Assembly: GCF_016859285.1 (NCBI RefSeq)
Contig: NC_053414.1
Span: 27,858,261-27,922,260 of the forward strand
Length of the DNA: 64,000 bases
Direction: 5' to 3'
Origin: Xiphias gladius
Lineage: Eukaryota; Chordata; Actinopteri; Istiophoriformes; Xiphiidae
Position numbers and translations under genes: made by a program. Shown here in pieces: positions 7,807-61,091 of the stretch (positions are counted from its first letter, which is position 1; each line of letters begins with the position of its first letter). The notes under the pieces are model-generated. The model ran no database searches. It worked only from the letters and a program-made list of their open reading frames with translations, and was not told the origin of the DNA.

Positions 7807-8820
7807 GATTGTAATTGTAATAACTTTTGTTTTTTATCCAAGTGCACTGAATTCATTTCAAATGTTTTTAATGCTTGTGAGAACAGATACATTACAGGAA
7901 GACAAAAACTGTTATTCTGCACGTATGTGAATATGCAAAGATTCAAGAACATCACAGTCTAAAACAATACAGAAATTGTGCTAATGTGCTTCATCCATTG
8001 ATTTCACAATGTGCAATGTAGTTCTGAAAATTACATTATACTTCGTAAAAGTTTGAAAAAACTTTTAGGTTTCACTCCACATCTAACAAATTACTTTCTA
8101 AAATTCAGCAGGTCTACAGTAACAAGTAAACAATCTTTCTCTACAATTGAAATGAGACAGCACATTTTATTCTATGCATTAAGCTTTGAACTGTTTTCCT
8201 GGGATCCTTTTTCAGCGATCACTTCATTTATGATTGAAGTTCCATCGTTAATTTTTACTGAGACAATTTTTGAATTCCTTCGTAACATGAAGAAACAGCA
8301 GCATGAATTGAGCTAATATTCAGTCTTTGGAGTTGTCTTTTATAATCTACTGATTGATAACACAAAATACAAGTGGTAATGGTAAAGTCACATGGTAGAA
8401 GTTTTACTCAGTACAATCATGAAGGACCTTGACAGACAATCCACTTGTACAGTTATATATGTTTCTTCAAAAAAATAGGAATACCTTTCAATCTACTATA
8501 TCATAGTATTAAAACAAGGTAAGGCACAAGGTGCTACAAAGTACTATAAACAGTTAAATGTAAATCAGTAGTAGAATAGTCCAAACTATACACACTACAT
8601 TAAGTATTTTCCTTCTCTTTAGTGCCTAGAAAATCAGGAAATAAAAATGACAACATCAAATCTGTTTTACTTGCATATAATGACCTTCATAATAATTAAG
8701 GTTAAATAAATATTTTCAATCAATAAACTTTAGACAAGGTGACGATAGTTGAAGGATGTTCCAATCCAATATAAAGCCGCATCTCTAATCCCCCAAAAAT
8801 TAGTCTCTTCCTAATATGCA
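7807..8820. other. Intergenic region between convergent genes
   Basis: AT-rich DNA between the slc43a3 poly(A) signal and the likely poly(A) signal of the minus-strand fusion gene. The longest open frame here (about 100 codons near 8011) has no recognisable domain, is AT-rich and is not flanked by convincing splice sites. I see no gene. Confidence 0.6.
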
Positions 8821-8826
8821 TTTATT
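8821..8826 (-). terminator. Likely poly(A) signal of the minus-strand transposase-fusion gene
   Basis: TTTATT on the plus strand reads AATAAA on the minus strand, about 230 nt beyond the stop codon at 9058. It is the nearest canonical signal I noticed downstream of that terminal exon. Confidence 0.45.
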
Positions 8827-9057
8827 TTACACTCTCATATGACCTCTCTATGTACGGCATCCAACCTCAGCATCCTGTTCTTATCCCAGCTGGAGACATT
8901 GTGCTCTTTCTCCTTTTTCCAGCATGATAACTTTGTGTTGGGGCTTTGGTTTATGGTAATAATCAAGTTTATATCTGGATAAGTCTAATTTTTACACGTG
9001 TAGCTGACTGTTAAATTAAGAGTGTGTGTAAAAGCAATCAGTGTTGTGTGTATGTGT

Positions 9058-12000
9058 TTATGGGACCTTTTCAATCCCAGTGTTCCTGTCATCATTTCTA
9101 ACTGCTGTTTGCCCGGTGTCGGTGGTGGGCATTTGGTTGTGGTGTAGAAACAGGATCGCTTCCAAACTTTCTGGTGGAATGTTGGCTCTCTTCCTGTACA
9201 TGGCTCCAGCTCCTTCCTGTACAAAGTCCTGTGCAGCATTACCTGCCACGGCAGGGGCAGCCAGGTAGGCCCGTGCCACTATGGCCAAGAGCGGAAACTG
9301 TACTGCCTTCGTCCTCCACCACTGCAGAGGCTCCACTCCCAGCGAAGCCCCCTTGTCGGCCCTGAAGACAGACATCTCCATGTCTATAGACTCCTCGACA
9401 GAGCTTTGCCTGCTCCGGGGGGCAGAGCAGAACAGGTCTCCCAGCAGGAATTCCATACCAGAGAGCCCGGCCTGAGAGCCTGGGTCTGCTGACTCATTGT
9501 CATCGGTCTCTCCTACATCACTCTCTTCATCTTCATCTTCGATCTCTCTGAAGTTGATTGGTCGGGATTCTTTGATACGTTTGCTCCTCCGCAGGAAGTC
9601 ACTCTCTGACTCTGGTGACCCAGGGGAGGGGCTTCTCTTAAGATGGCTTTGCTTCTTACCTTGCCTCCTCCTTCTGTCCTCCTTCACAATTCTGACGGCT
9701 TCTTTTTTCAGCCAATCAAAAGTTGCTGTCTGCTCCTAGAAATGGACACCATTAGGAAAACACTAATCTCTCAGTACACATTAATATCTATGCTAAAACA
9801 TCCCCAAAGAGACAGTAAAAGTCTTGCATGTGTGTGGCTATGCTTTAAAGTGATATATGCTATTCATAGGGTAGCATGTCAAACCTCAGTGTTTTGGCAC
9901 CAGCTGAAATGTGTCCAGAGAACCAAGTATTAACAAAATGCCAAGTACCATAAGCTGGCATTTTATTAGACTGTTCCTGATTTTGAAATCCAAATTTTAC
10001 CAATTTTAGACTATTTTATTGTACCAAGATCCTCGTATGGCCGCTTTTGTTTAGACAATGACCTCTGCTTTGAAGCATTTTGTTATCACAACCAAAACTC
10101 GGGTATCATATTGCGCTGATATCGGCAAGACTAAGAGTCTAGACTGATAGCATGCTAATATGACAAAACTTGGCAGCGGTAATATTTACCATGTTTACCC
10201 TCTTAGTTTAGCATGTTAGCATGCTAACATTTGTACAATTTGATGTAAAGAGCAGCTGAGGCTGATGGGAATGTTAGTTTTGTGGGTATTTGATCATAAC
10301 AGAGTATTGGAGAAATTACAATTTTGGCCTGATAATGGCACTACTTTAAAAGTTAAGGGATCAGCAGAGTTATTACAATTAATCTGAGGGGAACCAAATG
10401 AACAATATTTCATGGCAGTCCAGCCAACAGTTGTCAAAACATTTCATTAAAAACTGATGCTACAGAGGAAAGTCAGGTGGCTTCATCCTGTGAGGGTAAA
10501 CCAACCAATAGGTGCCATGCCCGCCAGCGTGGGTACAAATTTCAAGTGATACCAGCCCCCAGTTATTCACTAATCAGTTCACTTCATTAAAACTTAATGA
10601 CTCACCTTCTCCTCCATGAACCCCAGCCCATGGAACTGGGGGTCGAGGGAACATGCTATACACAGAACCCTGTTGACAACAGGGTTGTCGTAACAGCTTG
10701 CCAAGTTCCGCCTCATCATCCTCTTCACCTCCTTTAAGATGGATGACGAATCTCCTGGGCGGGATACAAGGTGGCGGGAGAGCAGGCCGATGAGAATGGG
10801 TTTGATGAGAGACAGACGGGGGAAGGCCTCTTTGGCAAGGGTTCGACATGCCACATCTAAAGGTTTGAGGACCAAGCACAGCTCCTCCAGGACCTTCCAT
10901 TCAGAACGTATTGTGACGTTTGCTGAGGATGTGTTGGAGGTTGAGTTTGCGTGGCAGCTCCCAGATGAACTGGTTTCTGATGCAGTGTCTTCTTTAGACA
11001 AGCCCTCCCCTTTAATCTCTTTTATTATATCACAGACAAGGCTTTTATGTTTGATCAACGTGCTTAGTAGAGTGTACAGCTTATTCCACGTTGGCCGACT
11101 ATGAGCCCACGACTTCAGCTCCGCCTGCTCTTGTTTTGTCAGGGCCTGCAACAGACTCTGATATGAGCCTCTGTTTTGAGCAGATGGCAGGAACAGGGTT
11201 GAGAGAGTACCCTGGAATTGGCAGAGAGTCTTGGAGATGACAGGGTATGACATCACTTCCTCAATGCAGTCCTGCACAGCGCTGAAGAAACATGGGACAG
11301 ATGGTAGTCCCTCACTGGAATGGCCGTGCTCAGAGCCATGTGGTTCCTCGGGTGACACAGATTCATCTCTCTCAAGAAATGTTGTTGAGTTTGGGTGAGG
11401 GACACTTCCTGCAGCATCTCCACCTTTGTCACTCTTTATTGGCCCCAGCCTCATCTTATTCCTCCCCTCCCCTCCCAGCAGGACCAGATTGGGCTGGGAT
11501 ATTCCCCACTCCTGTGCCATCACTTTCACTTGTGTCTCCACTGTTTGAACTCTGTACTCTTTCATCCCACTCTCTGTCAGTCTTTGGGTTGCCAGGGCCA
11601 GGTTCTGAAAACTAAAATTAGAGTCTATGTAGTGTGCCCAGAGGGTAAGGTACCTCTCAGTGTTGCCCTGCCAGTTGTGGGACCAGACATCGACACTCAA
11701 AGTGACAAAGTGAGGAATTTCCCTGCGATGGTTGGGAGGTCGCCCACGTCTCCTGGGCTCAAACTCGATGGGAGCAGTGTAGTCAGATATCTCCTCATTT
11801 TCTGCACTTCCTGTTTTACTTCTCAGCAGCTGAGAAAGGGTTGTCTTGCCTTTGGTGTGGTGTTCTTTCAGGAGGTTATCGAGGTGACAATGGGACGGCA
11901 GCTCCTTGCAGGAGGGTAGGAGGGTTTGGATAAGCTGTCTGAAGCCTTCTCCTTCTACCAGAGCTGGGGGCTGGAGATCCATGATGAGAAAGTTGGTGAT

Positions 12001-12086
12001 GGCATCGGTCACTTGTGCAGACAAAACCAGGGGGAGTGTACTGACCAGACCACTGTTAACCATCATGGGCTGAGAGCGTTGTTGAC
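9058..12086 (-). CDS. hAT transposase body and dimerisation exons of the fusion gene
   Basis: Exon 12086-10606 (493 codons) and terminal exon 9735-9058 (225 codons and stop) join in phase 0. The first has hAT features: VTDAITNFLIMDLQPPALVE, the strand LSVDVWSH holding the position of the first catalytic Asp, FFSAVQDCIEEVM, and WKVLEELCLVLKPLDVACR. The terminal exon starts with a basic stretch, goes through an acidic Ser/Asp/Glu linker and ends with the hAT C-terminal dimerisation segment (PLQWWRTKAVQFPLLAIVAR and LEAILFLHHN). The frame is intact across 2.1 kb with no terminal inverted repeats seen nearby and spliced introns present. This argues for a domesticated gene rather than a live transposon. 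Confidence 0.85.
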
Positions 12087-15000
12087 CTGTTGGGGGGAAA
12101 AAAAAAAGAGCTTGAACACATAGCAGTAGAAGAGTGGCAGAACCTACCAGCAGACAGGGGCAAGAAGCTTCTAGATGGCTGCAAGAAATGTTTAGAGGCT
12201 GTCATTGTTGCCAAAGGTTCTACAACCAAATATTTGTGAAGGGTGCCAATAACTGTGTCTGGATTATATTTTGTGTTTGCATTATTTAACTATCATGCAA
12301 GTTTTGTTTTTTATTTTCTTTTGTTCGGTAATCTTGGACATTTTATTAAAATATTATGATTATACAGAATTGGTTAATTTGCATAAGGGGTGCCAATAAT
12401 TTCAACCAGGGCTATATCTATCAAGCTTTGTACTATACTGGATACCAGATACATTTGCTTGTTGGAAAAAGGGCAAAGAAGGAGATTCCTCACAATAACA
12501 GATGAGCTTCAGGATGGTTAACTGACCATCGTTTGACTAATCGGACGGTTCACCACTTTGGTCCAGACTGAAATATCTCAACAACTATTGAATGGATTGC
12601 TATAATATTTTGTACAGACATTCATGGTCCCAAGAGGATGAATCCTACAGACTTTCTTGAGCCTACTGATTTTTCTTCCCATGCCACTGTGAGGTTGACA
12701 TTTGGGGTTTTTAGTGAAATGTCTTGACATCTACTGCATGAAATTTGATACAGATGTTCATGGTGCCTAAAAGATGAATCTTAACGACTTTGGTGGTCTC
12801 CTGACTATTCTTCTAGCATTATCACCAAGTCAAAGTTTTCACTTATCTTAAGATATCTCAACATCTAAAAGATGAATTGGCACAAAATTTGGTACAGACA
12901 CTTGGGTTCCATGCTTATCACTTTGATGATCCCTTTTCCATATAGCTCAATCATCTGTTCAAAATTTAAATTTGCCCAGTACTTAAATTTCTGACCAAAT
13001 ATCTGAAATTCGAATGTATTCACATCAGCCTAAGCTGTGTTTAACATCAATTAGGAAATGTTAGTATGTTAACACACTAAAATAACACGTGAACATGGTA
13101 AACACTGTACCTGCAAAACATCAGTGTCTTAGCTTTGTCACTGTGAGCATGTTGCAACGATAGCGCTAGCATTTAGCTCAACCCACTGCTGTACCAAAGC
13201 GCAGCTTCGCAGAGCTGCTAGAAAGGCTATAGACTCTTAGTCAATAGTTTTGGCTATCATTCCTTTTAGTAATAACACTGCACTTGCAATATTAATTGCA
13301 GAAACTGGAGACTACATTGCTTAAAAGAAGTCCGACTGGATAAAATCATGAGCAGTCAGACAACTAAAACAGGGTCTGGGTTAACAGAATTACAAAATTA
13401 CCCGAACTGTCATTTGCTTCCTCCCTGGTTTATATTTGACCTACAGTACCCACCATAGCTGTTACCATAGTTTAATGTGTGATATGCTGTGTTCCCAGAT
13501 CTCAGCAATTATTCTGGTGATTAAAATGTTTTCCTAAATGATTGTGAAATCTATGAAAATAAGGTTCAACTTGTAATAAACCAGAACTTTCCTTTAACCT
13601 TGTATCTTTGACCTGCTGCGCAATGCCAAAAGGCAGGAGAGAGTAATTGTTACCTATGATCAGAAGACTTCGATCCTTGTTACTGTCACGTGGTCTGATG
13701 TGGTGCTTGTTGGTCAGATGGTTTTGGAGGTCCGCTGCTCCTCCAGCACAGCCCACATGCTCCCCACACAGCTTACAGACCACAGTGCTACGGTCCAGGG
13801 GCCGACCAGTGGGGTCTGGCTCGAACCCAAAAAAGTACCATGGGCTGTTCTGTGTTGCGTTTGGGTTACTCAGAAGTTTCTCGGTTCCAGGTATAAAATC
13901 GTACTTTTCCATTGGATGAGAGCTGGGGGACGGGAAGGAGATCACGGAAGTGGAGGTGAAGGCTGAGCCAGAAATCCCGCCTGGGTCATTAGCTGTGTCT
14001 GGGTTTGACATTGTCGTCACGTCACTAATGACAGGCATGGGGCTCTGTGATTGGCTGTGATCTGACCAAAGGGAAGTGCTGCTGGGCTCCGGGAGGGTGA
14101 CCAATTGGATGTCCTGCAGTAGGCGCAGAGCTGTCTCCTTTTCTCCAACTTCACATTTCACATTGTCACCTGTGTTGCCCAACCAAAATCAAATGCAAAG
14201 GATATTGGCAAGATATTAAGCAAGCTAATTTTCTGGTCTTAAGACCTTCAGAATAGTTACAATTAAATTAAGTCTACCGTCAGCTGAAAAATGAATGTTA
14301 AAGTGAAAAATTGATATGGTTCGGCTAGTGTGTATCTATCATGACAGTAACCCAGTGAGACAGAACTCACCCATCCCCAGGCCCAGCAAGGAGGCATAAT
14401 CCTTGCCAATCCAGACCCTGAGCTCTGCTCCCTCTGTGATGGGCTGGGAAACCCTGTAGTAGATGTGACGGTAAAACTGGAAGACAACCAGATTGTGTTC
14501 CTCCTCACTGCTCGTATATTTTACATACCTATAATATGGAGCAAATACATACAGATTGTCAATGTGACCAACCAAGTAAGCACAAAACTCTGTACTCTAC
14601 TATGAAAAAAATCTGTAATTAAAACTGCATGTCAAACAGTATTACAAAAAAAACAAAGTGACAGGGAGAAAGGAAACTTAGTTTAGAGGGAAACACTACT
14701 TTAATTAGTTCACACTACCCACCTCATCCAGTTGGATTTGTTTTCATCAGAAGCATCAACGTAGATGAAAGCAGCATCATCCCTAATCTGGAGATGGGAG
14801 CAACGTGTATGTCAGCTATTCTTATGACCAATTCTATATGGAATTTCTAAATGGAATTGGCAACACAAACCACAAATTACATCATGTATTTTAAGTGGAT
14901 TTTAAATGTGATTGTGGCACAAAACAACACTGTTGCAGTAACTTGATTTCAAACTGCCTCTTTATGTCAGCTCAAACCAGTCTACTTACAGCCCAGGCAT

Positions 15001-17980
15001 ATTTGAGGTTGGTCGGCATTTGTCCCCTACACACTTCTCCTACAAAGGGCCCAAACATGACGCCTTGCTGAAGGTGACACTTGGCGTACACCTGCATGTC
15101 TCCCATCTGCTCCTCGCCAGAAGGACCAGACATCCCAGACTCAATGTCCCTGCACAGGCACAGGCAGGAAGGCAGGGATAGCACTGCTCGGGAAGGGCCG
15201 CCATGGAGCCACGGCTCCCCAGGTGGCAACACTGCATCTGGGACATAGTTCTGATTCGAAGCATTGTGGAGAAACGGAACATCCTCAAAGAATTCTTCAT
15301 GGTTGAGATCCAAACCTAGAAAACAAAAGAATGATTAGTCAGATATGGAACTGAGTTGGGATAGTCCTCTTTATGGAGCATGTTTACTGTTTCTTTTTTT
15401 GTTTTAGGTAAAAAAAAAAAAAGAAAGAAAGAAAATATAACAGAATTAAGCAACACGGGAAAATACAGATAACACCTTTGGAAAATGTCACTGCATTAGA
15501 ATGTAACTGTTACTATACAACATAAGATACGCCACTGGTCAAAAGCTTCAGAACACCACCATTTTTCCAGTTTTTATTTAAATCTAAGCAATTCAAGTCC
15601 AGTGAATAACCTTAAATGCTACAAAGGTAAGTAATAAACTGCCCAAGGTAAAAAAAACAAACAATTTAGCTCACCAAAAACCGAAAAATCATGTAAATGT
15701 CATAGAAAACCAGCCTTTTTCCAGGAATGAAGAAAGGGGTTAACTTACAGCTTTCACATAGCAAGGGAAGTAAATTAAGCATTGAAATGCAAACAGTTCC
15801 TACAGGTGCCCAAACTTCTGTTGAGTTCTTACAAACCCTCTGTCTGTACAAAGGCAGTGTTGGAACAAACTGTGTTACTACTGTACTGCAGGAAGTTGGA
15901 CTGTATATTGCTGTCAGAATGGGGAGAAAAAGGCAAGTAACAGAGGAAGACAGACTGGTTGGTCAGGGGTTCTTCCTACAGCAAGATAATGACCCAAAAC
16001 ATTATAAGAACTAGAAGGTGGCTTCACATGATGGAAGACCACCACAGTCTCCAGACTTAAACCCCAGGGAGCTGGTTTGGGATGAACCGGAAAGAAGGTG
16101 AAAGCAAAGCAGCCTGCAAGTGCAACACATTCACGGGAACTTCTGCAACAGTGTTGGGATGAACTCTCTGAACAAGATTTCATTTCCACTGTAGAAAGAG
16201 CAGCACGAGTGTGTTCTGCAGCTGGATTAGTCAAAGATTGTGGTTTTATTTCGTTCAACAAGATTCCATGATTCATTGTTTTTATAATCTCCATTTGGTT
16301 TTTTTTTCTTCTATGTTTTCATTTCAGAAACAATGAGACATTGAATTCTGTAAATTTAATAACACCTGGAAAAGTGGAGGTGTTCTAAACCTTTTGACCG
16401 GTTGTGTATATTACATAATTGGAAACACACAACCTTTTACAAATTACTTATTTATAGCAAAGACAGAAGCTTTGAGTTTGTTTCGATTAGTTTTATTTTG
16501 TTCCCCCACCAAGAAAAATTTATGTTTTTTTCAGTGTCTTGTATCCAGCATCACGATTGTTCATTCTGAATTCTGTAGACTTTTATCCTAATATTTCACT
16601 CAGACTGTGATTACTAAAAATAATTAATCCATTGCAGCAGTGGTGCAGAATGTGTGTGCTCGAGTGAACTTCTGTTAGGGTTGCCCACTTGTCTGGTGGC
16701 AGACCTGCTGGGCCAGCTGAATCGTTCTCTGGCAATATCTCGCTGCACTGCTTTCTGCTCCTGAGAGAGGGTGTCTGGTGACTTTGGAGGGAGCTTTCAG
16801 ACCTGTTAGGAGTATAATATTTACATAGTTTGATCAGGTGAAACAGGACAAATGTAAATTAAGATGCCAACAGGTGAATGAACGCATCCTACCTCTTCAC
16901 ACTGACAGTAATAATCTCTCTCCCCTCCAGTCCTGAATCACACAGTTGGTGAAAGGGTGTGCTTCTGATGCAGTGATTGGTGTAGATCACCGATGTTCCT
17001 GCTTCTTTACACATGCGAGCCAACATTGAGCCCAGATAATTGACACCTAGGGGGACATGGCTGTACCACATATCATCTGTTAGCTCCTTCTTAGGCTGCA
17101 AGTAAAGGGCGGCTGCGTTGGATGGCAGTTTGCTGAGGTACTTTAACAGAGAAGTAATAGGACAGAGTTCACTGCCTGGCTTCTCAAACATAGAACATCG
17201 GTCCTTCTCATTATACATTTTTGTCTCATCACCAAAAATTAAGGTGCAGTATCTCAATCCTCTCTCGTCTTTTCTTATTACAAATGAATCAGGCTTCAGA
17301 TTCCTGTTGGCCTGCTTCCCTCTGCGGCCGAAATGTACCTGTATATCAAACCAGACTTTGTTCAGAAGTCCCTTTGGAGTGCAGGTGTCCATTGCACGCG
17401 AGTGTTTTAGGATGCGGATATCATTAGGCGTCAGTGCCTGATGGTGTGAAGTTATGTCTCGACCGGACTTCCTGATTCTCCTGAGCACTCCCAAGAACAC
17501 CTTGTTGGCTGAGGTGAACTCAGCATCTCTCATTAAGCACACAGGACGGCCGACAGGAGGCTCTTTGAAGTAACGGTTAAGCCCAGCTCGCAGTGCAATG
17601 TAACTGGCAATCCCATACAACTCTCCTTTGCTGTTTCGTACGGATCCATAAAAGTGTCTCAGCAGTCCGTTGAGCTCTGTATTCTCCACCGTACTCAGGT
17701 CCACCTGGCGCCCCTGGGACTCTAACCAGCCAGTGAAGCAGTTCACAGCCCATGTTGTCTGCTTCTTTGTAACCTTACTTATTTCAGTCCTGCTGTCTTC
17801 GAGTTCTTCCAGCTCCAAGTCTGATACCATTGCATGTCTAAAAAGGTCAGTGGTATTTACCTCACACTCTTCCTCTTCTTGTGACTCATTCTCTTCTTTC
17901 AGAATGATCTCCTCTTTAGTTGTCATATCAGAAGCAAACAAATCCAAACTGTCACGACAATCCCTCTGGTCTGTTTTCAT
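9058..17980 (-). CDS. Candidate chimera: Crypton tyrosine recombinase - PR/SET - BED finger - hAT transposase
   Basis: Eight minus-strand exons join in one open frame: 17980-16893, 16802-16705, 15315-14990, 14787-14723, 14528-14371, 14169-13654, 12086-10606, 9735-9058. That is 4410 nt, 1469 residues plus stop. Domains in order: acidic N-terminus and DUF3504/KIAA1958-like Crypton recombinase (about 1-395); PRDM-type PR/SET domain (about 430-580, NWMRYV and ELRVWIGKDY); BED zinc finger (about 690-745, CKLC then HLTNKHH); hAT RNase-H-like body (about 750-1240); hAT dimerisation tail (about 1245-1469, with PLQWWRTKAVQFPLLA). The last six exons are tied together by strong donors and matching phases. 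The link from exon 1 to exon 2 is supported by homology continuing across it. The link from exon 2 to the PR exon relies on a weak donor (GCAG then GTCTGC), so the locus may instead be two adjacent genes. Likely nuclear and DNA- or chromatin-binding; function unknown. I cannot assign orthology to PRDM9 or PRDM11. Confidence 0.6.
10125..10450 (-). repeat. Interspersed fish repeat, copy 1 (reverse orientation)
   Basis: This segment contains GTTAGCATGCTAAC-type motifs, the block TTTACCATGTTTACC and a degraded reverse-complement of the ATTTGGT...GACTTTGGTGATCCC block. It matches, in reverse orientation, the copy at 12.5-13.2 kb. The family is common in percomorph introns; I do not name it. It lies in the intron downstream of the hAT exon. 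Confidence 0.65.
12130..12420 (+). mobile_element. Truncated Tc1-like element (3' end)
   Basis: The fragment begins with a relic of a Tc1 transposase C-terminus (CTTCTAGATGGCTGCAAGAA, reading LLDGCKK) and ends with the terminal block GGGGTGCCAATAATTTCAACC typical of fish Tc1 families. Its 5' part and left terminal repeat are absent here. It sits in the intron just upstream of the hAT exon. Confidence 0.65.
12500..13245 (+). repeat. Interspersed fish repeat, copy 2 (forward, most complete)
   Basis: It opens with blocks such as AATATCTCAACAACTATTGA and GTACAGACATTCATGGTCCC, repeats two diverged internal copies of the ATGAATC...GACTTTGGTG block, and ends with GCTAGCATTTAGCTCAAC and TATAGACTCTTAGTC. 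Similar sequence occurs at 10.1-10.4, 27.7 and 63.7-64.0 kb. Confidence 0.7.
13654..14169 (-). CDS. BED zinc-finger exon of the fusion gene
   Basis: A 516-nt exon with phase-1 borders on both sides (donor G then GTAACA). A low-complexity Ser/Pro-rich linker is followed by a BED-type finger: SPWYFFGFEPDPTGRPLDRS, CKLCGEHVGCAGG, then LQNHLTNKHH, giving the C-x2-C and paired His ligands. BED fingers bind DNA and typically head hAT transposases and ZBED genes. Its donor joins the hAT exon in frame, reading IIGQQRSQPMM. Confidence 0.85.
14371..15315 (-). CDS. PR/SET domain exons of the fusion gene
   Basis: Three exons, 15315-14990, 14787-14723 and 14528-14371, encode a PRDM-family PR domain. The first exon starts in phase 1 at a good acceptor and encodes an acidic leader (NHEEFFEDVPFLHNAS) followed by the PR N-terminus (GDMQVYAKCHLQQGVMFGPF). 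The second encodes AAFIYVDASDENKSNWMR, and the third RYVKYTSSEEEHNLVVFQF and AELRVWIGKDYASLLGLG. The NWMRYV segment and the WxGxxY-like end are diagnostic of PRDM rather than classic SET enzymes. No C2H2 zinc-finger array follows; instead a BED exon does. The third exon ends at a strong donor (G then GTGAGT) whose phase matches the BED exon. Confidence 0.85.
15529..16409. mobile_element. Degenerate Tc1/mariner element with terminal inverted repeats
   Basis: The ends form imperfect inverted repeats: CTGGTCAAAAGCTTCAGAAC at about 15535 against the reverse complement of GTTCTAAACCTTTTGACCGG at about 16383. The interior keeps fragments of a DDE transposase (a QQDNDPKH motif near 15980 and SPDLNP near 16055) broken by stops. 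The element is too short (about 0.88 kb) and too decayed to be autonomous. It lies between the recombinase exons and the PR/SET exons of the minus-strand locus. Confidence 0.8.
16583..17980 (-). CDS. Crypton-derived tyrosine recombinase domain gene (KIAA1958-like), stand-alone form
   Basis: Exon 1 (17980-16893) and exon 2 (from 16802) encode a DUF3504-type domain like that of KIAA1958, QRICH1 and ZMYM proteins. It has an N-terminal SAM-like part (TTWAVNCFTGWLESQG, YGIASYIALRAGLNRYF) and a catalytic-like part (QVHFGRRGKQANRNLK, TNHCIRST). The intron is phase 2: AAG AG at the donor joins G of exon 2 to give KRSESSLQSH, which continues the family pattern. If the weak internal donor at 16705 is not used, the frame reads to TAA at 16583, giving about 436 residues, but the last 40 look non-coding. 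The HxxR motif is present. The residue aligned with the nucleophilic tyrosine (S-Y in the usual KSEASIRSY) appears to be His here. This suggests a domesticated, non-recombining DNA-binding protein. Confidence 0.65.
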
Positions 17981-18500
17981 AATGTTAGCTGCTGTTAGCT
18001 CCAGCAGCTGACAGGGTAGTCGCTTTGTGATAAATAGACAATGCAGCAGGCGCAGCAGGTGTTATGATAAGGCCATGTAAACAAAGCGGGTGGATACCGA
18101 ACCGTAGTCAGGTTCGGGTGCTATACAGCGATTATACCACAGTCATTATCACCTTGTATTGAAGAGACGGGTCAGTCTTTTTAGAAAAGGGTTTTAAAAC
18201 GGTAAAGATGGCGGCTTATACTGGCCAATCATTGCCCCAACCGCATAACCGTTATTTACGACATATCATGCCAGCGGGACAATGGCAACACCTTCCGTAA
18301 CAAATGCATTTTAATAACAAAATATTCGCAGATGTTACCGTTTGCTCCTTACAATGAACCGCATGAATGACTGTTTAGCTGATACCATGGCAACAACAAG
18401 GGTATGAGACTGTCGTAAAACAGACCTCTGGCGCTAGCGTTGCATTCTCTTTGAGCATGCGTACAAGCATTACAGATGTTTGTATTATGACTTTTATGCC
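17981..18500 (-). promoter_or_regulatory. Probable promoter and 5'UTR region of the recombinase/fusion gene
   Basis: The sequence upstream of the ATG at 17980 is relatively CpG-containing and has no TATA box I can place. It lacks coding character and ends the open region. The start site cannot be fixed from sequence. Confidence 0.35.
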
Positions 18501-19080
18501 GAAAATAAACACTCTGCGTCGAATAGTGTAAAATGTACCAGTGCCCCTAAACCTGACATGGAAATGACATTATATATGAAAGAACTTGACATTAGATAAC
18601 CCCCCGTTTAAAGAAATACACCGTTTTACTCAGAAACCGACGCAAACGAACTATCTTGATGATAGGCACTCTGATACAGAGCATGGTCGGAATTAAATGT
18701 TGCATTCATAGATGTGACACATTAAATACACTCACATCATTATGTGTTACAACATTAAATATTCTGCTAAGTAAAATAACTTACTGTATCACGTGATCTA
18801 TGCTCTAAAGTGGGTTATAAATGGGCAAAGAGTATGCATACACAATAACAGCATTAGGGTCAGCGGCTATTTTTTCCCCCTTAAACTGCTCCCCATGGAC
18901 CTGCAACTTTGCAAACTTTAGGAAACCCATAGTAGTGCCCCACTGCAATGTATTCTGTCAGTTTAAAGGGGGTGGATGCATGTAGTCGTTGCAATTGCTG
19001 TCAGTGCTCCAAGACTCAAATCTGATGCACGCTATACATCTATAAATGCAGTGAAATCACTGAATTTGGTGGGAAATCAC
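18501..19080. other. Non-coding interval
   Basis: AT-rich DNA between the fusion-gene promoter and the orphan BED exon. I looked for a hAT body continuing from the BED exon and saw none. Confidence 0.5.
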
Positions 19081-19321
19081 CTGGCGCCTCAAACAAAGCT
19101 CCAGAGGTCGTGGAGGAAGTGGTCTCGAAAAAATCTGCACGATGTCGACGTCTCAGATGACTTCTTAAATTCGTGGTATTTCCACCTTTTGCAAGCACTA
19201 TTTTTCGGCACAAGCGACAAACGGCCTCGCCAGAGTTCAAAGGTTGTCCCTTTTCATCTGCTTTCAGGCCAAAATACAACCACACGATAGACTTGCTTCT
19301 TGGTTTACTGATAAGATCCAT
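19040..19321 (-). CDS. Orphan BED zinc-finger exon or gene fragment
   Basis: A 93-codon frame starting at ATG 19321 encodes a complete BED finger: SIVWLYFGLKADEKGQPLNS, CRLCRKIVLAKGGNT, then LRSHLRRRH (C-x2-C and paired His). It resembles ZBED-type hAT-derived proteins. A possible donor (CCAG then GTGATT) at 19081 would end the exon after FEAPG in phase 1. No hAT catalytic region follows nearby on this strand before the recombinase gene. It may be a first exon whose partner is far downstream, a stand-alone short gene, or a transposon remnant. Confidence 0.6.
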   Translation of the reverse strand: MDLISKPRSKSIVWLYFGLKADEKGQPLNSGEAVCRLCRKIVLAKGGNTTNLRSHLRRRHRADFFETTSSTTSGALFEAPGDFPPNSVISLHL

Positions 19322-21000
19322 GTTTCTCTGGCCCTTTTTCTGCTTTTCTGCAGACTACCGCTGGCTGCAGCACTGCTGCGAGAACTGGGGTGGATAGAAA
19401 GGGCACCCCGTGGAAAATTACGCCAATTTCTGCATTGAAGTGTTTTAAGTGTATGCCACCTTAACAGCGTAGTGAGGACGAGGGCTCTCTGCGTGAAAAT
19501 CGCGAGAAAAGTGTGCAAACATTTTCAGTGGCTTTTATAAAGACAGATCGGATGACAGTCAGTGAATTAGTGATGCGACGTCTATCTGCTCTGTTTCTGT
19601 GCTCCCCTACGCCTTTAATTGTGAACCAACGACAACACACCGCGACGGGTCAGGGCTGCCAGGTCCTGTTGCTTATGGACCTGCACAAATTTCAGTCCAA
19701 ATATTGTTTAAATCCCACTCAAATGTCTGAGAATGTATTTCCCTAATATAAGTGTTGCGAGTTCTTTTAAAAGTTTTAAATAATGCTGGTTTTAAAAAAA
19801 CCCCACAATAAGTCATCAGTTAATTCTGAGTGTTTTACTTTTGAAAAGGTCCCTGCCAAGCATCATTTTCTTCGTACCGGGTCATTGGCAGGTTCTATCA
19901 AGTGGCCAAAAAACAAAAAAAAGGCTAGTAAAATGGTAACATAAACAGGCATTAAAGAAATGTGGCTCATTGTGTCAGGTGAAAAGATACCAAATAAAAT
20001 AGACTATCAGTGGTATAACTTTGCTTTAAATAAAAAAGTTCCAAGGCTGGATTACCAACCAGTTAAAGCAGAAAAATGCCTCAGGACCCCAGAACCTCAG
20101 GGGCCCCAAAGACCTGGGGTCACTGCGTGACAATTAGTTTTACTAAAATGTAAACCGCAATGATTAAAATCGAAATATCTTGTGTCAAAATCTAGTTTTA
20201 ATATCTATGTTATTTTAGTTGATAGTGTCCTCCCATGTTGCATATTTTCTTGATTAATCCTTTGGTGTTCAAAATAGTGAAAAATGCTCATTCTACCCAA
20301 ACATATTTCATTTGCTATCACGTATGACAAAAAGAAGCAGCAAATCCTCACATTTAAGAAGCTTGAACAGGAGAATGTTTGGCATTTTTGCTTGAAAAGT
20401 GACTGAAATTATTCATCAGTTATCAAAATAGTTGCCTACTAATTTTCTTTTTATCAATTTATCAGTTGATCAGCTAAATGTTACAGCTCTATTTTTTTTA
20501 AAGCATATTAGTCTTTGTTGATTTCTGGGCCTCTACAAAATTTGCTGTACACACTGTACCTTCGAGATAGGAAGGCAGGCAAAGAGAGTGTGAAAAACCA
20601 GGCGTTCAATAGGGGTCCAAAGCTCCATTTTGCCCTGTAGCAGTTAATCCAGTTTTGTGTAGGTCTTTCTGACAGGTTTGAATTATCAACCAGAACAGAA
20701 AACCAGATACCTTGAGCTACCATTTCCCACCTCAAATCGTCAGAACACCAGTCCATCCATCTCCTGGTCAGGCTGTTTGTATTACTGCATGGCTCACTCC
20801 TTCCATGGTACTGACTGAGGCTTTTCATTAAGTTCTTAGGTAAAAAATTACATACAAAACCAACCAACAATCTTCTTGGCAACCCCCCATAAACATCTGA
20901 GACCCCCCTCCGTCAACCGACTTACGTGAATTCTTCAAACCTGGCAACGCCGGGGCTCGCGTACTTCCTGTCGCACAGAGTTTGGCATTTGCTGTCATAC
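19322..21000. other. Non-coding interval upstream of ccdc175
   Basis: I see no gene here. A 124-codon minus-strand frame near 20508-20882 has no recognisable domain and no codon-use support. The final part grows richer in CpG towards the ccdc175 start. Confidence 0.5.
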
Positions 21001-21526
21001 CAGGCAAGTCTGACTCGTGTTTTCAGCCCACACACGTCTGGGGAACCGAGGGTGATCCTAAACGTCTGCTCGGGAATCGTGACACTTTTCAGGTAAGCGC
21101 CAAACCTGTTGTTGAGCGCCCAGTGCTTACACCAAGTTATTTTCCAGGAAACTAGACAGGTAAGGCTCTCTAGTGGGATTACTTGTTAGTTCATGCTTCA
21201 TACGCAGAGGCCGCCGTGTCGTGTCGGTTTATCTAATATGCGGTTTATCTACAATTCGGTTTAGCTTAGTTTCTTGGGGTTAGGTAAAGGCTCAGCGGCA
21301 GCGGTCGCTCGGTTTCACGGTTAGCTAACAGTTAGCCACCGCTAACAACATTGTGGCCTCGCTGACTCGCCGTAGCATGTTGCTTCGTGGTGGCGCAGCT
21401 GTTGCCACGGCGACCGCACTCACAAGTTATAGTGGTAGAAGCTAACTGAACTTTTAATCAGGAGACAAGCTTTCGAGCGCAAGACGCGCATAGACCTAAA
21501 ACAAAAGACATTTGGATTCATAAAAG
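21001..21526 (+). promoter_or_regulatory. ccdc175: ccdc175 promoter and 5'UTR with a possible leader intron
   Basis: CpG-containing sequence precedes the long coding exon. A good donor (TTTTCAG then GTAAGCG at 21093) and a candidate acceptor (AATCAG ending at 21461) suggest a 5'UTR intron. The coding ATG at 21527 is the first in the long frame. Confidence 0.4.
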
Positions 21527-23743
21527 ATGGCTTCTTGCTTGGTCCCCGATTTCCCGGCCGTTATGGTTGCTCTCGAGCATTTAAAGGAACTGGACCAATG
21601 GCTGAAAGAGGAGGGAGTACCGTTCGCACCTGAAGCCAGCCTCCATCTGGCAGAGATGACGGCTGCTATTACTGACCTGGAGTCGGACCGACGTGCTGCC
21701 CATGAACATTTAGAAGTGGAAACCATCGAAAACAGTAAGCTAAGATGCCAAATTAACAATATACGTGAACGAATGAGCCAGGAAATCATGACAGACGTAA
21801 CAGCGGCCCGGGCTTCTAATGCTGAAGAGATAGACCTGCTGCATAGAGACCTAAACGCCGTCTCTCAGCTACAAGAAGCCACTGTGAAGAGGCATGAAGC
21901 CCTATTGAGCCAAAACAAAGCACTTTACCCTCAGCGAGATCAAGTGAAGGCTGAGAACGGAGAGATCATTGCCGCTCTCAATGATCAATTCAGCCAAAAA
22001 TATGGCTTGCAAATGCGTCTGGATCATACACAGGAGCAGATAGAGGAGCTAAAGTCCTGCATCGCCGCGGTCGAACAGGACAAAATAACACTTGAGCAAA
22101 ATATGGCACTGGGGAGAGAGGCTTTCAGTGTGAAAAAAGACAACCTGTCCAGAGAAGTGGATCAGATTGATGAGAAAATTAAGCAGCAGAAGAAAGCGAT
22201 CAGGAGGAGCAGAAGAGAGCTGAACAGAGTTAATGGCAAGAAAAAAGAAACCCAGGACCATCTGGGAGAAGCCACGACTGATATGGTCAAGGTGGAGAGC
22301 AATTTACGAAGACTGACGGCGTCTCGGTGCCAGTTTGAGAAACAGCTAGAAGGAGAGACCCAGACGCATCAAGAATTGAGGGAACAGAGAGAAGCGCTGA
22401 AGAAGGAGTTGTGTGAGTTAGGAGAAGCGTTCAGCTTTGCCATTCAGCGTCTTAAAGAGGAAATTGCCACAGTGGAGGGTAAAATAGAGGAGGGCCAAGC
22501 TTCAAGGTTGCGCTGTCAAGACCTCCTGGTTCAAATCTATGAGACATTCAAGCACCAGAACGATGAAGAGAACGAAGTAAGGGGAGGGCACTTCCACGTC
22601 TCACAGCAGCTGGAGCACTCCAAGCTGCAGCTGGAGGAACGCATTGCATCCATAGTCAAACACAGTAATGAGATCAAAGAGATGGACAAGAAGATCAGAG
22701 AACTCCTGGAAGCTGACACGATCAACAAGCGTGTGTTTGAGAGGAATCGGGAGGAGCTGTGTGGAAACATGGATGCAGAGAAGAAGAACATCAGCCATCT
22801 TGAAGAGGAGGAGAGCAGGCTAAGGAGACTCCAGGAGGAGGCGAAGAGGAAACAGGAGGAATATGTCTCAGAAATGACCTCTTACATCAGCAACACCAGG
22901 AGGAGATACGAGGAGCTGCGGCAAGAGGAGGCCGCACTCCAGCAGCGTCAGCCCAAGAGCGTAGATGCCAACTTGCTAATGAGACACGTGACCCAGTGTG
23001 AGGTGGAGTACAGACAAATAGAGATCAAACACCATCAAGAAATAGAGCAATGCACTGCAGAGACTGAGAGCATCACAAAGAGCAATGAGGAGAAGCAGAG
23101 GGAGGTGAAGGAAAAAGCGGAGATGCTGAAGGAGGTGGAGGCAAAGTGGAATGAGGAGCAAAGCAGGCACCAGAGACTGAAAACACTCCACTCCGAGCTG
23201 AGGCAGAGGAGGACTGAGCTGGAGCTGTCGATTCAGGGGTTGAAGGAGAAAACCAGCTCTCTGCTTCAGCCCAAAGAGGACATGAAGGCTGAGCTGGAGG
23301 AAATGCGAGCAAGTTACATGGATGTGCTCGACAAACAGGCCACAGAGCTGAGAGCTGTAGAAATGAGCATCTATGACAATAGCGTGAAACTGGAGCAGGT
23401 CAGCATGGAGAACAGCAGGCTGCATCTCTGTATCAGACAGATGACAGATGACGTTAGCAGAGCCAGGAGGAACAAAGACAGATACTGGCAGGAGATCCAC
23501 CAGTTCAACCAGGACATAAAGGCCTTGTTTGAGAGTTTACAGGAAGCATGGAGAGAGGATTTATTGGTAACTGAGGACTGTCAGAGCAGTGATGATGTTT
23601 TGTTGATGTCTATGAGTGCTTTGTTGAACCATCTGAAGACTAGGAGACAGCAGTTAGGAAATGTCAACACTCTCCTACACCAACAAATGTTAGATTTCAG
23701 CAAACGACTGGGAGACAAAACAACCATAGACCAGCATAATTGA
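21527..23743 (+). CDS. ccdc175: Coiled-coil domain-containing protein 175, single coding exon
   Basis: A 738-residue protein that is almost entirely heptad-rich, charged coiled coil. The N-terminal part (VALEHLKELDQWLKEEG, then HLEVETIENSKLR) aligns in layout with human CCDC175, which has an equivalent ALEQL and LEIESMELNKL arrangement and similar overall length (about 790). Function is not established; the human gene is mainly expressed in testis. There is no signal peptide or membrane segment. The whole 2.2-kb coding region is uninterrupted, whereas the human gene has many introns, so this copy may descend from a retrotransposed transcript. A poly(A) signal follows 90 nt after the stop. Coiled-coil similarity can mislead, so the family call rests mainly on the N-terminal alignment and length. 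Confidence 0.72.
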   Translation: MASCLVPDFPAVMVALEHLKELDQWLKEEGVPFAPEASLHLAEMTAAITDLESDRRAAHEHLEVETIENSKLRCQINNIRERMSQEIMTDVTAARASNAEEIDLLHRDLNAVSQLQEATVKRHEALLSQNKALYPQRDQVKAENGEIIAALNDQFSQKYGLQMRLDHTQEQIEELKSCIAAVEQDKITLEQNMALGREAFSVKKDNLSREVDQIDEKIKQQKKAIRRSRRELNRVNGKKKETQDHLGEATTDMVKVESNLRRLTASRCQFEKQLEGETQTHQELREQREALKKELCELGEAFSFAIQRLKEEIATVEGKIEEGQASRLRCQDLLVQIYETFKHQNDEENEVRGGHFHVSQQLEHSKLQLEERIASIVKHSNEIKEMDKKIRELLEADTINKRVFERNREELCGNMDAEKKNISHLEEEESRLRRLQEEAKRKQEEYVSEMTSYISNTRRRYEELRQEEAALQQRQPKSVDANLLMRHVTQCEVEYRQIEIKHHQEIEQCTAETESITKSNEEKQREVKEKAEMLKEVEAKWNEEQSRHQRLKTLHSELRQRRTELELSIQGLKEKTSSLLQPKEDMKAELEEMRASYMDVLDKQATELRAVEMSIYDNSVKLEQVSMENSRLHLCIRQMTDDVSRARRNKDRYWQEIHQFNQDIKALFESLQEAWREDLLVTEDCQSSDDVLLMSMSALLNHLKTRRQQLGNVNTLLHQQMLDFSKRLGDKTTIDQHN

Positions 23744-32600: not shown

Positions 32601-33805
32601 CACAAGGTGATAACACATCAGTGCTGTGTTCACCAGTCGTTCCACATTACAGCCTTAACTGTCTAGCTAAGTTTATTAAATGTTAGAAAATGCAGTCCTA
32701 GATACAGACAGTAGTAAATGGGCCATAACTTGAAAATGGCTAGGGTGTTCTCGTTTCCAAAATCGTAGCAAGGAGACATCCTGAGCGAAGGCTTGCTAAC
32801 GTAACTATGAAGCATTGTTTGGCTACTACTGCATCCTGACGCCAGGTCTCCCTTTTCCTCTTGTCCTTCAGCCCTGGGCGAGGGACTTGACAGTTTCGTC
32901 CAGTGTCCCCTGGAGGCCCTCAGCTGGTCCCGCAGGAAGTATCTCATCTTAGAGGAGATCCTCACCCACCGACCTCATATCCTGTGTCTGCAGGAAGTTG
33001 ACCACTACTATGACACCTTCCAGCCGGTTCTGGCAGGCCTGGGTTACAACGGTAGCTTCTGCCCCAAACCCTGGTCGCCGTGCTTGGATGTGGAGGGCAA
33101 CAACGGCCCAGATGGCTGCGCGCTGTTCTTTGATCAGTCGCGATTTGAGCTCCTGGATAACATGAACTTAAGGCTCTCTGCCATGAGGATTCCAACCAAC
33201 CAGGTTGGTAGGATTCCACTTTCTCTCATAAAGGGCTACACACAAAAAAACCCTACCTCTAACATTCTTCTCTCTCGTCACAGGTCGCCGTAGTGGTGAT
33301 GCTACGCTGTCGGAGCACAGCAAGATGCGTGTGCGTGGCCGTGACCCACCTGAAAGCCCGCTCTGGCTGGGAGTGGCTCCGCAGCGCTCAGGGCTGCGAC
33401 CTCCTGCGACACCTCCAGAATCTGGTCCAGAAACACGCCGGCGGTCCCACGGGTGACCCCAGCTCTGACATTCCTCTGCTCATATGCGGCGATTTCAACG
33501 CAATCCCAACTGAGGAGGTGTACCGACGCTTCATTACGTCGCCTCTCAGTTTGGACTCGGCCTATAAGAAACTCAGCCAAGACGGGTTGACAGAGCCAGA
33601 GTACACAACATGGAAGATTCGGCCTACAGGTGAATGTTGTACCACTCTGGACTACATCTGGTACAGTCAGGACACGCTGAGAGTGGACGCTGTTTTGGAC
33701 ATGCCTACTGAGGAACAGATTGGACCAAACAGACTTCCGTCCTTTAGCTATCCGTCTGACCACCTCTCTCTGGTTTGTGACTTCAGTCTTAAGGAGAAAG
33801 AGTGA
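29664..33805 (+). CDS. noct: Nocturnin, circadian NADP(H) 2'-phosphatase of the EEP family
   Basis: Nocturnin is an exonuclease/endonuclease/phosphatase-fold enzyme. Vertebrate nocturnin removes the 2'-phosphate of NADP(H); it was earlier described as a deadenylase. Exons: 29664-29676, 31542-31684, 31799-31973, 32872-33203, 33284-33805. All junctions are GT-AG and phase-consistent, giving 394 residues, or 387 from the ATG at 31550. Conserved parts: MGGGATRLYSAL (N-terminal segment), SPIRVMQWNVLAQALGEG, LCLQEVDHYYDTF with the metal-binding Glu, NNGPDGCALFF, VTHLKARSGWEW, LICGDFNAIPTEEVY, TTLDYIWYSQDTL and SDHLSLVCDFSL with the catalytic Asp-His pair. The catalytic residues look complete. The exon 2 start gives MGGG, a possible N-myristoylation site. 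The gene is convergent with elf2, as expected from human 4q31. Confidence 0.95.
31488..31509. repeat. (CA)n microsatellite next to the noct exon 2 acceptor
   Basis: A CA dinucleotide tract ends about 33 nt before the acceptor of noct exon 2. Confidence 0.9.
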
Positions 33806-37320: not shown

Positions 37321-46265
<8,945 letters not shown>

Positions 46266-58199: not shown

Positions 58200-60640
58200 A
58201 AATCTTACGTAAATTGGTATGATAGCGCTAAATTGAAATATAGAATATCTATATGGCTTTCCAGACAGGGAATAACCCCTGGATGGAAAAATTGTAATGG
58301 TGATTTCAACATAGCGTTCACAGATATTAGTTACATGGCATTTATGTATGTTTTGCTACGTAGTATGTAATGTAATGGGAGTCAGGGGGTTAGGCTGCCA
58401 CTCACACTGTCCCATGATGTTCCTGTCCGTCACCCCACCCTGGCAAATCACCAGGACAGCCTAAAAATGAGCACTGTAATCCTGGATTAGTCTTAACCTG
58501 TCTGTGAGGCAGCTTTAAACTGCACTGGTCAAAATTTAAATAAAAGGCTCATACAAAGCTGTAATTTATCAATGAAAACTGTGGTAAATTTTCAGGATAA
58601 AGAAAAAAAAAAAATGTTCAAGCTGTACACACTTTTAAGCATGTGGTGGGTTGAGGATTTAAAAAAAAAAAAAAAAATCTTCTTGAGCAGGACCTGCCAC
58701 ATACATCTGATAGTTTCATTCTACCCGTCTCTGCCTGTTGTACAACCTTATGAATAAATTTATGCAGATTAATCTATTACAGACACTTAGGTGAGGGCAG
58801 GTAGAATTGTGCTTCTAGCTTCGGTTTTTTTTAACCTTTTGTTTTATGTTGTTGCATATAAAAAACAAAATAAAAAAAAAATAAAAAATTCTGTGATTGC
58901 TAATGGATTACTCCGGTCTCGGCAAACTTTTCTTCCAATTAAAAATTGTGTGTGAAATGCCTGTGATAAAGGGCTATACAATTCAACTGACTATCAGAAA
59001 TATATCAGCATAGTCATGTGAAACGTGGAGAAAAATTCTTAGGATCTTTGTCGTTCAATGTTCCACTTGATTGCACAGGAGCATGAAAACGGCACAGGGA
59101 TTCTTCAGGCAAGGAGGCATTTCTACAGAAGAGGGTGTTTCTATATCTACAGTATAATTATTACAATATTTACTGCGTCACATTCACCTGCTTTGGTCAA
59201 AGCAACGAGCAAAAGCATCTAAGAGTGTCAAATGTATTTGGGCCACAAATTAGCCCTGGACAGATTTGATATTGATTCTGATCCACTCTTGGACAAAACC
59301 TCCCAATCTTTTGATAAATGCAAACAATAATCATGTTTAAAAAACACAACCTTGAATATACAGACAGACATTCACCACGCAAGAATAAAAATGCAATATC
59401 AAACCAAAAAAAAAAGAGTAACTTTGTCTTTATTGAAGCACATCAAACGTACTTATCATCCAGTGATGTATTATTCTTTGAACACTTAACTGTATTAATC
59501 ATCATGCCAACTTTCGTGGCTCAGACAGAGATGAATCAGTTCTCTTTTCTGTAGTGTTCCCTGAAAGATTAGTTTCACAGTTAAAGAGACAGAGAGTTGG
59601 AGCAGAAGTGTGTTTAAACACTTAAAAAAAAAAAAAAAAAAAAACTAAAAAGAAAAATGGCTTTCGGAGAAAAGGCTGGAAAAGATGTCATGATGTAGAG
59701 ACATGGGTGAGTTATATGAAGTGGGCGCAGGCTGGTGTAATTGTAGATAGATAACTAATAAAAATGTAGTAATGGAAATAAGTTTCTGAATGTATGGCAC
59801 AAAAAGACAAAAGGAAAATTCTGAAATAAGAGGACAAAAGAAAATCCCATTTGAACTTTTTCTCACCATGAGAAACAGGATTTTATAGGAGTCAAGAATA
59901 CCAGACAAGAGCTGCAGTCTAGAAAAGAAAAAAAAAAAAAAAAAAAACACAACTAACTAGTTTTTGGTCACACTTCACAGAGAGACAGAGTTAAATCTGA
60001 AGGAGTTCCACCGTCCCACCGTTTGTACAATAATCCTAAACTTAGCCAGGAATCATGGGACATAGCTGGAAGTAAGCATTTGCTGAGCAGAGGATGTCCG
60101 AGAGAAACAAGACTGAACAATTTCTTAAATGGACTGCATTCATCCACCATCACAACATTTTTAGATAAGTAGAGGAACAGATGATGCAGGACCGTGTCTT
60201 GTTTTTAAGGGCACTTCCAATATGATTTTACTGAGAACAACATTAGTTATCAACTCTGCTCTATCCCTTATATCACCCCCTTCAACACTCCTCTACTAAC
60301 GGTACAGCAGCCAAAGCATAATTTGGATTAGCTCTGCTCTGGTGAAGAGGATTCCTATAGAAACTGAATTTTCCAAAGTGAATCTGTTTAGACAGCCTAA
60401 TGCCAAATATTATGGTCCGGCTCTGAAGGTTGGGGTGAGGTAAAGGGAAGAAAGGCACCTGAAAACTGGACTGATGAACCCCTCACTGGTATTCACTAAC
60501 CAACTGGAAGTGAAAACTAAATGCTTTTTTTTCCTCTTTACTAAAACAGGGGTTTATGAGTCCTTTTTTCCTGGGCCCAGAGAGGCGGGACACAGCACAA
60601 ATAACTTCTAGCCCTCCTTTCTGGCCAAACTATAATCGAG
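58200..60640. other. Non-coding interval between the two mgarp-like terminal exons
   Basis: AT-rich DNA with several poly(A) runs and no recognised domain. TTTATT at about 59427 could serve as a minus-strand poly(A) signal for exon A. Confidence 0.45.
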
Positions 60641-60651
60641 CTTCCAGAGCT

Positions 60652-61091
60652 TTATGCAGCCACCTCTACAGCAGGAGCAGCCTCACCCTCAGGGGCTGCA
60701 GGCACAGTCTCTGCCTCAGCGAGGGGAGCGGGAGGGACTTCATCTACTGCAGCCATACCAGTGCTCTCTGCCGCGGGGGCTTCTGCTGGAGTCTCCACCG
60801 TGGCGGCGACTTCCGCAGCGACAGGAGCAGCCTCGGGGACTGCCTCTACTGCTGCAGGTGGAGCAGCTTCTTCTGCCACTGCTGGCTCCGCTGGTGCCTC
60901 GGTAACGATCGCCTCAGAGGCTTCTTCAGCCGCGGCCTCGACGCCAGGATCGGCAACGGTCTCCGGTACCGCTTCTGCGGGAGCGGGGACAGACTCTGCG
61001 ACGACCTCGGTGGCCGGCACTGCCTCCTCCTCCACCGGGGCGGGTTCAGCTGCAGGAGCTGCTGCCTCTGGTGCTGCCTCAGCTGAAGAAG
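60652..61091 (-). CDS. mgarp: mgarp-like terminal exon A (alternative Glu/Ala-rich tail)
   Basis: A second terminal exon on the same strand follows an acceptor ATCTGCAG and starts SSAEAAPEAAAPAAEPAPVE. It encodes about 145 residues almost wholly of Ala, Glu, Val and Pro, ending VEVAA and stop. Composition and phase-1 entry are the same as in one reading of exon B, 3 kb downstream. It may be an alternative last exon of one gene, or the tail of a tandem duplicate. The opposite strand is also open over this segment because of the GC-rich repeats; I prefer the minus strand for its splice acceptor and its match to exon B. Confidence 0.55.

What the first reader, a model, noticed from the sequence alone, without database searches (positions are those of the whole stretch)
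9058..17980. A possible four-part chimera: Crypton recombinase + PR/SET + BED + hAT transposase
The sequence shows eight minus-strand exons whose phases all match, giving one 4410-nt frame (1469 residues) with domains from two unrelated DNA transposon classes around a PRDM-type PR/SET domain. The PR-BED-hAT part is joined by strong splice sites. The Crypton part joins through a weaker donor at 16705 whose phase fits exactly, and beyond which the reading frame loses coding character. Domesticated Crypton domains (KIAA1958, QRICH1, ZMYM) and hAT domains (ZBED genes) are known separately; I do not know of a described protein combining both with a PR domain. If real, it could couple transposon-derived DNA recognition to chromatin regulation.
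Basis: partly seen in the sequence, partly recalled or inferred. Interest (0 to 1): 0.92.

Follow-up and report, generated by a model that had tools for sequence, protein, structure and literature searches.

The report
PR/SET–BED–hAT gene beside a Crypton gene
A fish-like genome carries a one-copy gene built from a chromatin-enzyme-like domain and a tamed jumping-gene protein, next to a second tamed jumping gene; whether the two make one giant protein, as first proposed, is unproven, and an overlooked zinc-finger exon further upstream is a better candidate for the start of the gene.

Summary
The eight exons and their phases are as described (4410 nt, 1469 aa). The PR–BED–hAT part (15315–9058) is well supported: PR domain of the PRDM9/PRDM11 kind, hAT dimerisation domain, no second locus with both in the own genome. 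The Crypton ORF is real too: intact, its catalytic tyrosine lost, five of six related loci carrying stops. Their fusion is not established. The donor at 16705 scores 4.06; 0.44 as good and in phase are expected by chance there. The Crypton frame has its own stop and AATAAA. Low coding score after 16705 is weak evidence, since relic tails score low too; but that tail, unlike the stretch before it, is not like relic tails, which favours a fusion. An overlooked BED exon (19321–19081) has a CpG-rich 5′ region and an in-phase donor of 8.46, giving a 1154-aa BED–PR–BED–hAT protein. I favour that gene with the Crypton gene in its first intron (0.42); alternative first exons, as in KCTD1, or the four-part fusion remain open. 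No transcript evidence exists here.

The parts
19081..19321 (-).
   Evidence: zf-BED E 3.6e-11; in-frame stop 19357-19355 and start aacATGG; donor CAGGTGATT 8.46, phase 1; next best genome match 46% identical (150 of 252 candidates scored)
19101..19900 (.). CpG-rich stretch (o/e up to 0.89), candidate promoter and first exon of BED1
   Evidence: window median o/e 0.354
17901..18800 (.). CpG-rich stretch (o/e up to 1.04) directly 5' of the Crypton ATG, candidate Crypton promoter
16893..17980 (-). Crypton-derived exon 1 (DUF3504), ATG at 17980
16583..16802 (-). Crypton-derived exon 2: box SESSLQSH (Tyr replaced by His), then either its own tail to the stop at 16585-16583 or, by donor 16705, a join to the PR exon
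16492..16497 (-). AATAAA, poly(A) signal candidate for a separate Crypton gene
15523..16413 (.). Tc1-like element (name recalled) with 59-nt inverted ends (81%) in the supposed intron; a partial copy 97% identical lies about 193 kb away on the same contig
14990..15315 (-). PR exon 1, acceptor 12.16
14723..14787 (-). PR exon 2
14371..14528 (-). PR exon 3 (PRDM9 Y341 kept; Y357 replaced by Ile)
13654..14169 (-). linker + BED2 exon
10606..12086 (-). hAT transposase body exon
9058..9735 (-). last exon with hAT dimerisation domain and stop; AATAAA downstream at 8826

Best explanation
Two domesticated, same-strand genes. The first (about 19.3-9.06 kb) is a host gene BED1-PR-BED2-hAT of 1154 aa: BED exon 19321-19081 splices over 3.8 kb to the PR acceptor at 15315 and on through a probably dead hAT transposase. 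Shown: exons 3-8, phases, domains, no second locus with PR and hAT in the genome. Inferred: the BED1-to-PR splice and expression. Likely mode of action (inferred): the BED fingers bind DNA, the hAT C-terminus dimerises, and the PR domain, which has lost two of the three PRDM9 active-site tyrosines, contacts histones or partners rather than methylating; together a sequence-specific chromatin regulator. The second is a Crypton-derived DUF3504 gene (17980-16583) with its own CpG-rich 5' region, an intron inherited from the transposon and its own stop, lying inside the first intron of the other.
For: BED1 has the highest-scoring donor of 11 ATG-led phase-1 candidates (score 4 or more, 10 aa or more, within one exon) between 15316 and 21520 (donor 16705 is not in that scan because its ATG lies in another exon). 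Among 249 AG sites downstream of BED1 the PR acceptor scores best of those with an open phase-1 frame of 30 codons or more (12.16; the next two, 15910 and 16188, lie in the Tc1-like element). BED1 and BED2 are related (36%). In the first 20.9 kb of the window only two CpG-rich stretches pass o/e 0.75: over and before BED1, and before the Crypton ATG; o/e is 0.24 in 15316-16585. Just before the Crypton ATG the best in-phase acceptor scores 1.38, so BED1 is unlikely to splice into the Crypton start. The Crypton intron is present at the same place in decayed copies L013, L015 and L016. PR-BED-hAT: 6 of 15 matches are its own exons, the 9 others weak (5 to PR, 4 to hAT), none at a shared locus (43 of 52 candidates scored).
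Against: No transcript. BED1's codon score lies between coding and noncoding: 0.9-12.8% of coding 80-codon windows score as low, 4.5-6.0% of noncoding ones as high, by model, and it was not above its best other frame. BED fragments without stops are common in this genome (58 matches), so an intact 80-codon BED is not proof of a gene. The Crypton frame's tail after 16705 is not like the tails of the decayed copies (shuffles equal or better in 96% local, 66% global), while the stretch just before it is (0 of 5000 shuffles; earlier): that favours loss of the native tail, as a splice into PR would give, although tails outside the recombinase are said to differ widely among Cryptons (PMC3212892 section 10). 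A nested same-strand gene with its own poly(A) site is awkward for the outer transcript. Splice scores come from simple matrices of my own.
Confidence: 0.42

Rival explanations
1. Four-part fusion: transcription from the 18 kb CpG-rich stretch, Crypton exons 1-2, donor 16705 to acceptor 15315, then PR-BED-hAT (1469 aa).
For: Phases fit. Codon change point at 16720 or 16678 by model, around the donor. DNA likeness to decayed Cryptons ends near 16728 and the tail beyond is not Crypton-like while exon 2 before it is. KCTD1 is a precedent, and the C6 locus of this genome has a DUF3504 frame 11-12 kb before a BTB match on the same strand.
Against: Donor 4.06 is below the six others, and 0.44 as good in phase are expected by chance; a better donor 16 nt on (16689, 5.04) is out of phase. 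Own stop and AATAAA. Relic tails also score low as coding.
Confidence: 0.22
2. Alternative first exons on one PR-BED-hAT core: a BED1 isoform and a Crypton-derived isoform, made when a Crypton inserted upstream of the PR exons, much as published for KCTD1 isoform b.
For: BED1 (19081) and Crypton (16705) donors are both phase 1 to the same acceptor; two separate CpG-rich stretches. Mechanism published for KCTD1.
Against: Needs the weak donor 16705 as well; two phase matches are one in nine by chance.
Confidence: 0.21
3. The PR-BED-hAT gene starts elsewhere: from the first 67 codons of the Crypton frame (donor 17779, TAAGTAAGG, 6.65, phase 1), from a small exon at 20998-20926 (donor 7.9), or from a non-coding exon with initiation at the Met at residue 61 of the first PR exon.
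For: Donors listed; the Pfam PR match begins after that Met (residue 72).
Against: Donors score lower than BED1's; the sequence before that Met still aligns to PRDM9 (from residue 38), so it is probably translated.
Confidence: 0.13
4. The PR-BED-hAT exons or the Crypton ORF are untranscribed relics.
For: Only sequence is available.
Against: No internal stop in the 4410-nt spliced frame, while five of the six other related Crypton loci show stops, up to 14 in one match (frameshifts included); splice sites intact.
Confidence: 0.02

Closest known systems
KCTD1 isoform b (Crypton-derived DUF3504 + BTB)
   Same: DUF3504 exon 5' of a host gene on the same strand, made by a Crypton inserting upstream (PMC3212892 section 11). 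The nearest intact relative of this Crypton ORF here is at C6 (33% identity, 571-aa frame), with a BTB match (31.4 bits) 11-12 kb downstream, so probably KCTD1 itself
   Different: The partner would be PR-BED-hAT, not BTB; here the Crypton part spans two exons with an intron inherited from the transposon; the join is unproven
SETMAR (SET + mariner transposase)
   Same: a chimeric SET-transposase protein (abstract start of PMC4593633 in a search listing)
   Different: PR-type domain, and a hAT transposase with BED fingers; separate origin (inference)
ZBED genes (domesticated hAT transposases)
   Same: BED finger(s) + hAT C-terminal domain (PMC3606216, abstract start and passages seen)
   Different: a PR domain; the words SET, PRDM and fusion do not occur as whole words in that paper's text
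PRDM9 / PRDM11
   Same: PR domain closest to PRDM9 (E 6.1e-24) and PRDM11 (7.9e-18) among solved structures
   Different: no C2H2 array found in the 1074-aa PR-BED-hAT part; BED and hAT instead
KIAA1958, ZMYM2-4, QRICH1
   Same: Crypton-derived DUF3504 host genes (PMC3212892 section 10)
   Different: this ORF keeps the H-x-x-R pair; those lost its arginine and histidine

Membership tests
Crypton-derived DUF3504 gene | DUF3504 domain above the curated cut-off | tested here: met
   45.3 bits against 29.7
Crypton-derived DUF3504 gene | catalytic tyrosine lost | tested here: met
   SESSLQSHQ against SESSLKTYW (L015) and SESLLKSYW (L013); L016 has SCF there
Crypton-derived DUF3504 gene | second conserved arginine lost (true of all six human genes in PMC3212892 section 10) | tested here: not met
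   TNHCIRST keeps H-x-x-R; suggests a younger or less decayed domestication, so I call it Crypton-derived, not one of those genes
Crypton-derived DUF3504 gene | conserved across species | not testable with these tools
   no related fish genome held; scans of viral and prokaryote contigs found nothing
domesticated hAT (ZBED-like) gene | hAT C-terminal dimerisation domain | tested here: met
   35.7 bits against 21.4
domesticated hAT (ZBED-like) gene | BED finger | tested here: met
   BED1 43.3 bits; BED2 16.9, below the cut-off of 20.6, but homologous to BED1
domesticated hAT (ZBED-like) gene | catalytic residues lost | tested here: inconclusive
   Hermes Glu 572 (its role recalled; position from chain numbering of 8edg) aligns to Ala in a weak alignment; loss of the second Asp judged by eye only
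domesticated hAT (ZBED-like) gene | no close copies, no element ends | tested here: inconclusive
   no close copies; of 21 inverted pairs in 8000-21600 none looks like hAT ends; one 27-nt pair (8678/15607, 74%) brackets the exons but one arm lies in the Tc1-like element
PRDM family | PR domain | tested here: met
   119.4 bits
PRDM9 | active-site tyrosines Y276, Y341, Y357 | tested here: not met
   Phe, Tyr, Ile, placed by hand on the printed alignment to 4c1q; residues named in PMC5519329 (passages)
PRDM family | C2H2 zinc-finger array | tested here: not met
   none listed by Pfam in the PR-BED-hAT part
KCTD1-type Crypton first-exon isoform | DUF3504 exon spliced to the host core | not testable with these tools
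   needs RNA; donor 16705 at chance level

The most novel reading that the evidence does not exclude
One PR/SET-hAT chromatin core that takes its N-terminal recognition module from two different transposon classes by alternative first exons: a hAT BED finger (BED1) or a Crypton tyrosine-recombinase domain, with recombinase and PR domain, and probably the transposase, all lacking catalytic residues.
Probability: 0.21. Interest if true: 0.9.

Novelty: new variant of a known kind. Interest (0 to 1): 0.6.

Why it matters
If expressed, the PR-BED-hAT gene would be another way, besides SETMAR, in which a vertebrate joined a SET-type domain to a transposase, and the neighbouring Crypton would be a further, less decayed domestication of a class known from few vertebrate genes (KCTD1, KIAA1958, ZMYM2-4, QRICH1). 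A real Crypton-PR-hAT isoform would combine two unrelated transposon classes in one chromatin protein, and would repeat the KCTD1 route to a new N-terminus.

Tried and rejected
My notebook reading that the unspliced tail resembles the native Crypton tail: withdrawn; shuffles give no support, and the positive control (exon 2 before it) passes with 0 of 5000. BED1 as a recent transposon copy: not favoured (next best match 46%; 150 of 252 candidates scored). BED1-to-Crypton splice: no adequate acceptor just before the Crypton ATG; one at 17175 inside Crypton exon 1 scores 5.35. A 20-nt direct repeat (80%) flanking BED1: judged chance. Structure predictions of Crypton exon 1 and of the hAT body exon, single sequence: mean pLDDT 33.8 and 41.0, unusable, no fold search made. 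Scans of viral contigs and of prokaryote contigs (PR-BED-hAT part only): no relative. Rfam at gathering score on 8000-22000: nothing. The profile-HMM test of the tail failed, and the exon-2 control planned in that script did not run. In one search several frames were set wrongly; redone. Papers: eight answered searches in the open library aimed at such genes showed, in the listed titles and abstract starts, no report of a PR-BED-hAT or Crypton-PR gene; one of them found no paper with all four terms. Subscription papers are not held.

Full report
What was checked. The eight exons are exactly as stated and give 1469 codons and a stop.

PR-BED-hAT part. The protein of exons 3-8 (1074 aa) has a PR domain (E 1e-34) and a hAT dimerisation domain (E 7.4e-9). 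Its PR domain is nearest PRDM9 (E 6.1e-24) and PRDM11 (7.9e-18) among solved structures. On the printed alignment to PRDM9 chain 4c1q the three tyrosines named in PMC5519329 (passages seen) read Phe (276), Tyr (341) and Ile (357); I placed them by hand, and the spacing of the three tyrosines in the chain fits their numbers. [quoted passage not shown] The internal BED is below Pfam's cut-off but homologous to BED1. In the own genome 15 matches were found (43 of 52 candidates scored): six are this gene's exons and nine are weak, five to the PR and four to the hAT part, at no shared locus. The hAT family search gave 86 matches (150 of 214 candidates scored), so hAT relatives are many, but none is close to this one. 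I read it as an old one-copy gene (inference).

Crypton part. One search found 12 matches: two are this ORF; ten fall at six other loci, of which C6 (33% identity, 571-aa frame) is intact and five show stops. A BTB match lies 11-12 kb downstream of the C6 frame on the same strand, so C6 is probably KCTD1 (inferred). One search found 20 DUF3504 matches, nine loci by my grouping, this one included. Relics L013, L015 and L016 have an intron at the same place and nearly the same acceptor for exon 2. Against them this ORF has lost the tyrosine (His) and the GH before the intron (VK; GH is kept in L016), but keeps H-x-x-R. It has no stop over its exons, while one match of L016 shows 14. Selection for coding is the simplest reading.

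Is there a fusion? For: phases fit; codon change point at 16720 or 16678 by model; the PR exon has no ATG before its PRDM9-like part and no CpG-rich stretch before it; without the Tc1-like element, which has a 97% partial copy elsewhere and so looks fairly young (40 of 874 candidates scored), only about 380 nt separate the Crypton stop from the PR acceptor; and the tail after 16705 is not like relic tails (shuffles equal or better in 96% and 66%) although the 23 residues of exon 2 tested before it are (0 of 5000 in both modes). Against: donor 4.06 with a chance expectation of 0.44; own stop, and AATAAA about 85 nt later; relic tails score low as coding too; and the source paper says sequences outside the recombinase differ widely among Cryptons, so an unlike tail may be native.

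The missed exon. BED1 (19321-19081) begins at the first in-frame ATG after an in-frame stop, in a context good by recalled rules, holds a zf-BED (E 3.6e-11) and ends at a donor of 8.46 in phase 1, the highest of 11 single-exon candidates. The PR acceptor at 15315 is the best of the 249 AG sites that open a phase-1 frame of 30 codons or more. Joined, BED1 and exons 3-8 read through for 1154 aa. Stretches with CpG o/e of 0.75 or more begin at 17901-18800, 19101-19900 and 20901-22100 (the last at a plus-strand coiled-coil-like gene); there is none before 17.9 kb. Their G+C is only 0.41-0.45 for the first two, so they are CpG-rich, not classical islands. Splice scores come from simple weight matrices that I wrote from recalled consensus frequencies, not from a trained fish model. 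BED1's codon score is only intermediate.

Verdict. Two domesticated ORFs on one strand are well supported; the BED1 start is the best guess (0.42), the four-part fusion alone 0.22, alternative first exons 0.21, another 5' end 0.13. KCTD1 isoform b is the precedent for a Crypton giving a new N-terminus; SETMAR and ZBED genes are the nearest kinds for PR-BED-hAT. The searches named in Tried and rejected showed no report of this combination.

Noticed in passing
window 15786-16411: Tc1-like element copy 97% identical to a partial copy about 193 kb away on the same contig (C15:27680281), while the other long matches are 74-82% (40 of 874 candidates scored); only the element is shared. A recently active or locally duplicated sub-family.
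   Followed up: partly
window 17779-17980: Second phase-1 donor (TAAGTAAGG, 6.65) inside the Crypton frame would splice its first 67 codons straight to the PR acceptor, skipping the recombinase domain.
   Followed up: partly
G000:C467:90863-92785 (L026, L007): A 711-aa open frame with a BED start and a hAT end, apparently an intact hAT element or ZBED gene.
   Followed up: no
window 10185-10373 and 12917-13102: Two introns of the PR-BED-hAT gene carry inverted copies of one repeat (69% identity).
   Followed up: no
window 60514-61161: Long overlapping open frames on both strands in an alanine-rich stretch.
   Followed up: no
window 32811-33805 and 37321-38994: Exonuclease/endonuclease-domain exons (+) and an Ets-like exon (-, 24.4 bits, just below Pfam's cut-off of 26.9); by recall nocturnin and ELF2, neighbours in human too.
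   Followed up: no
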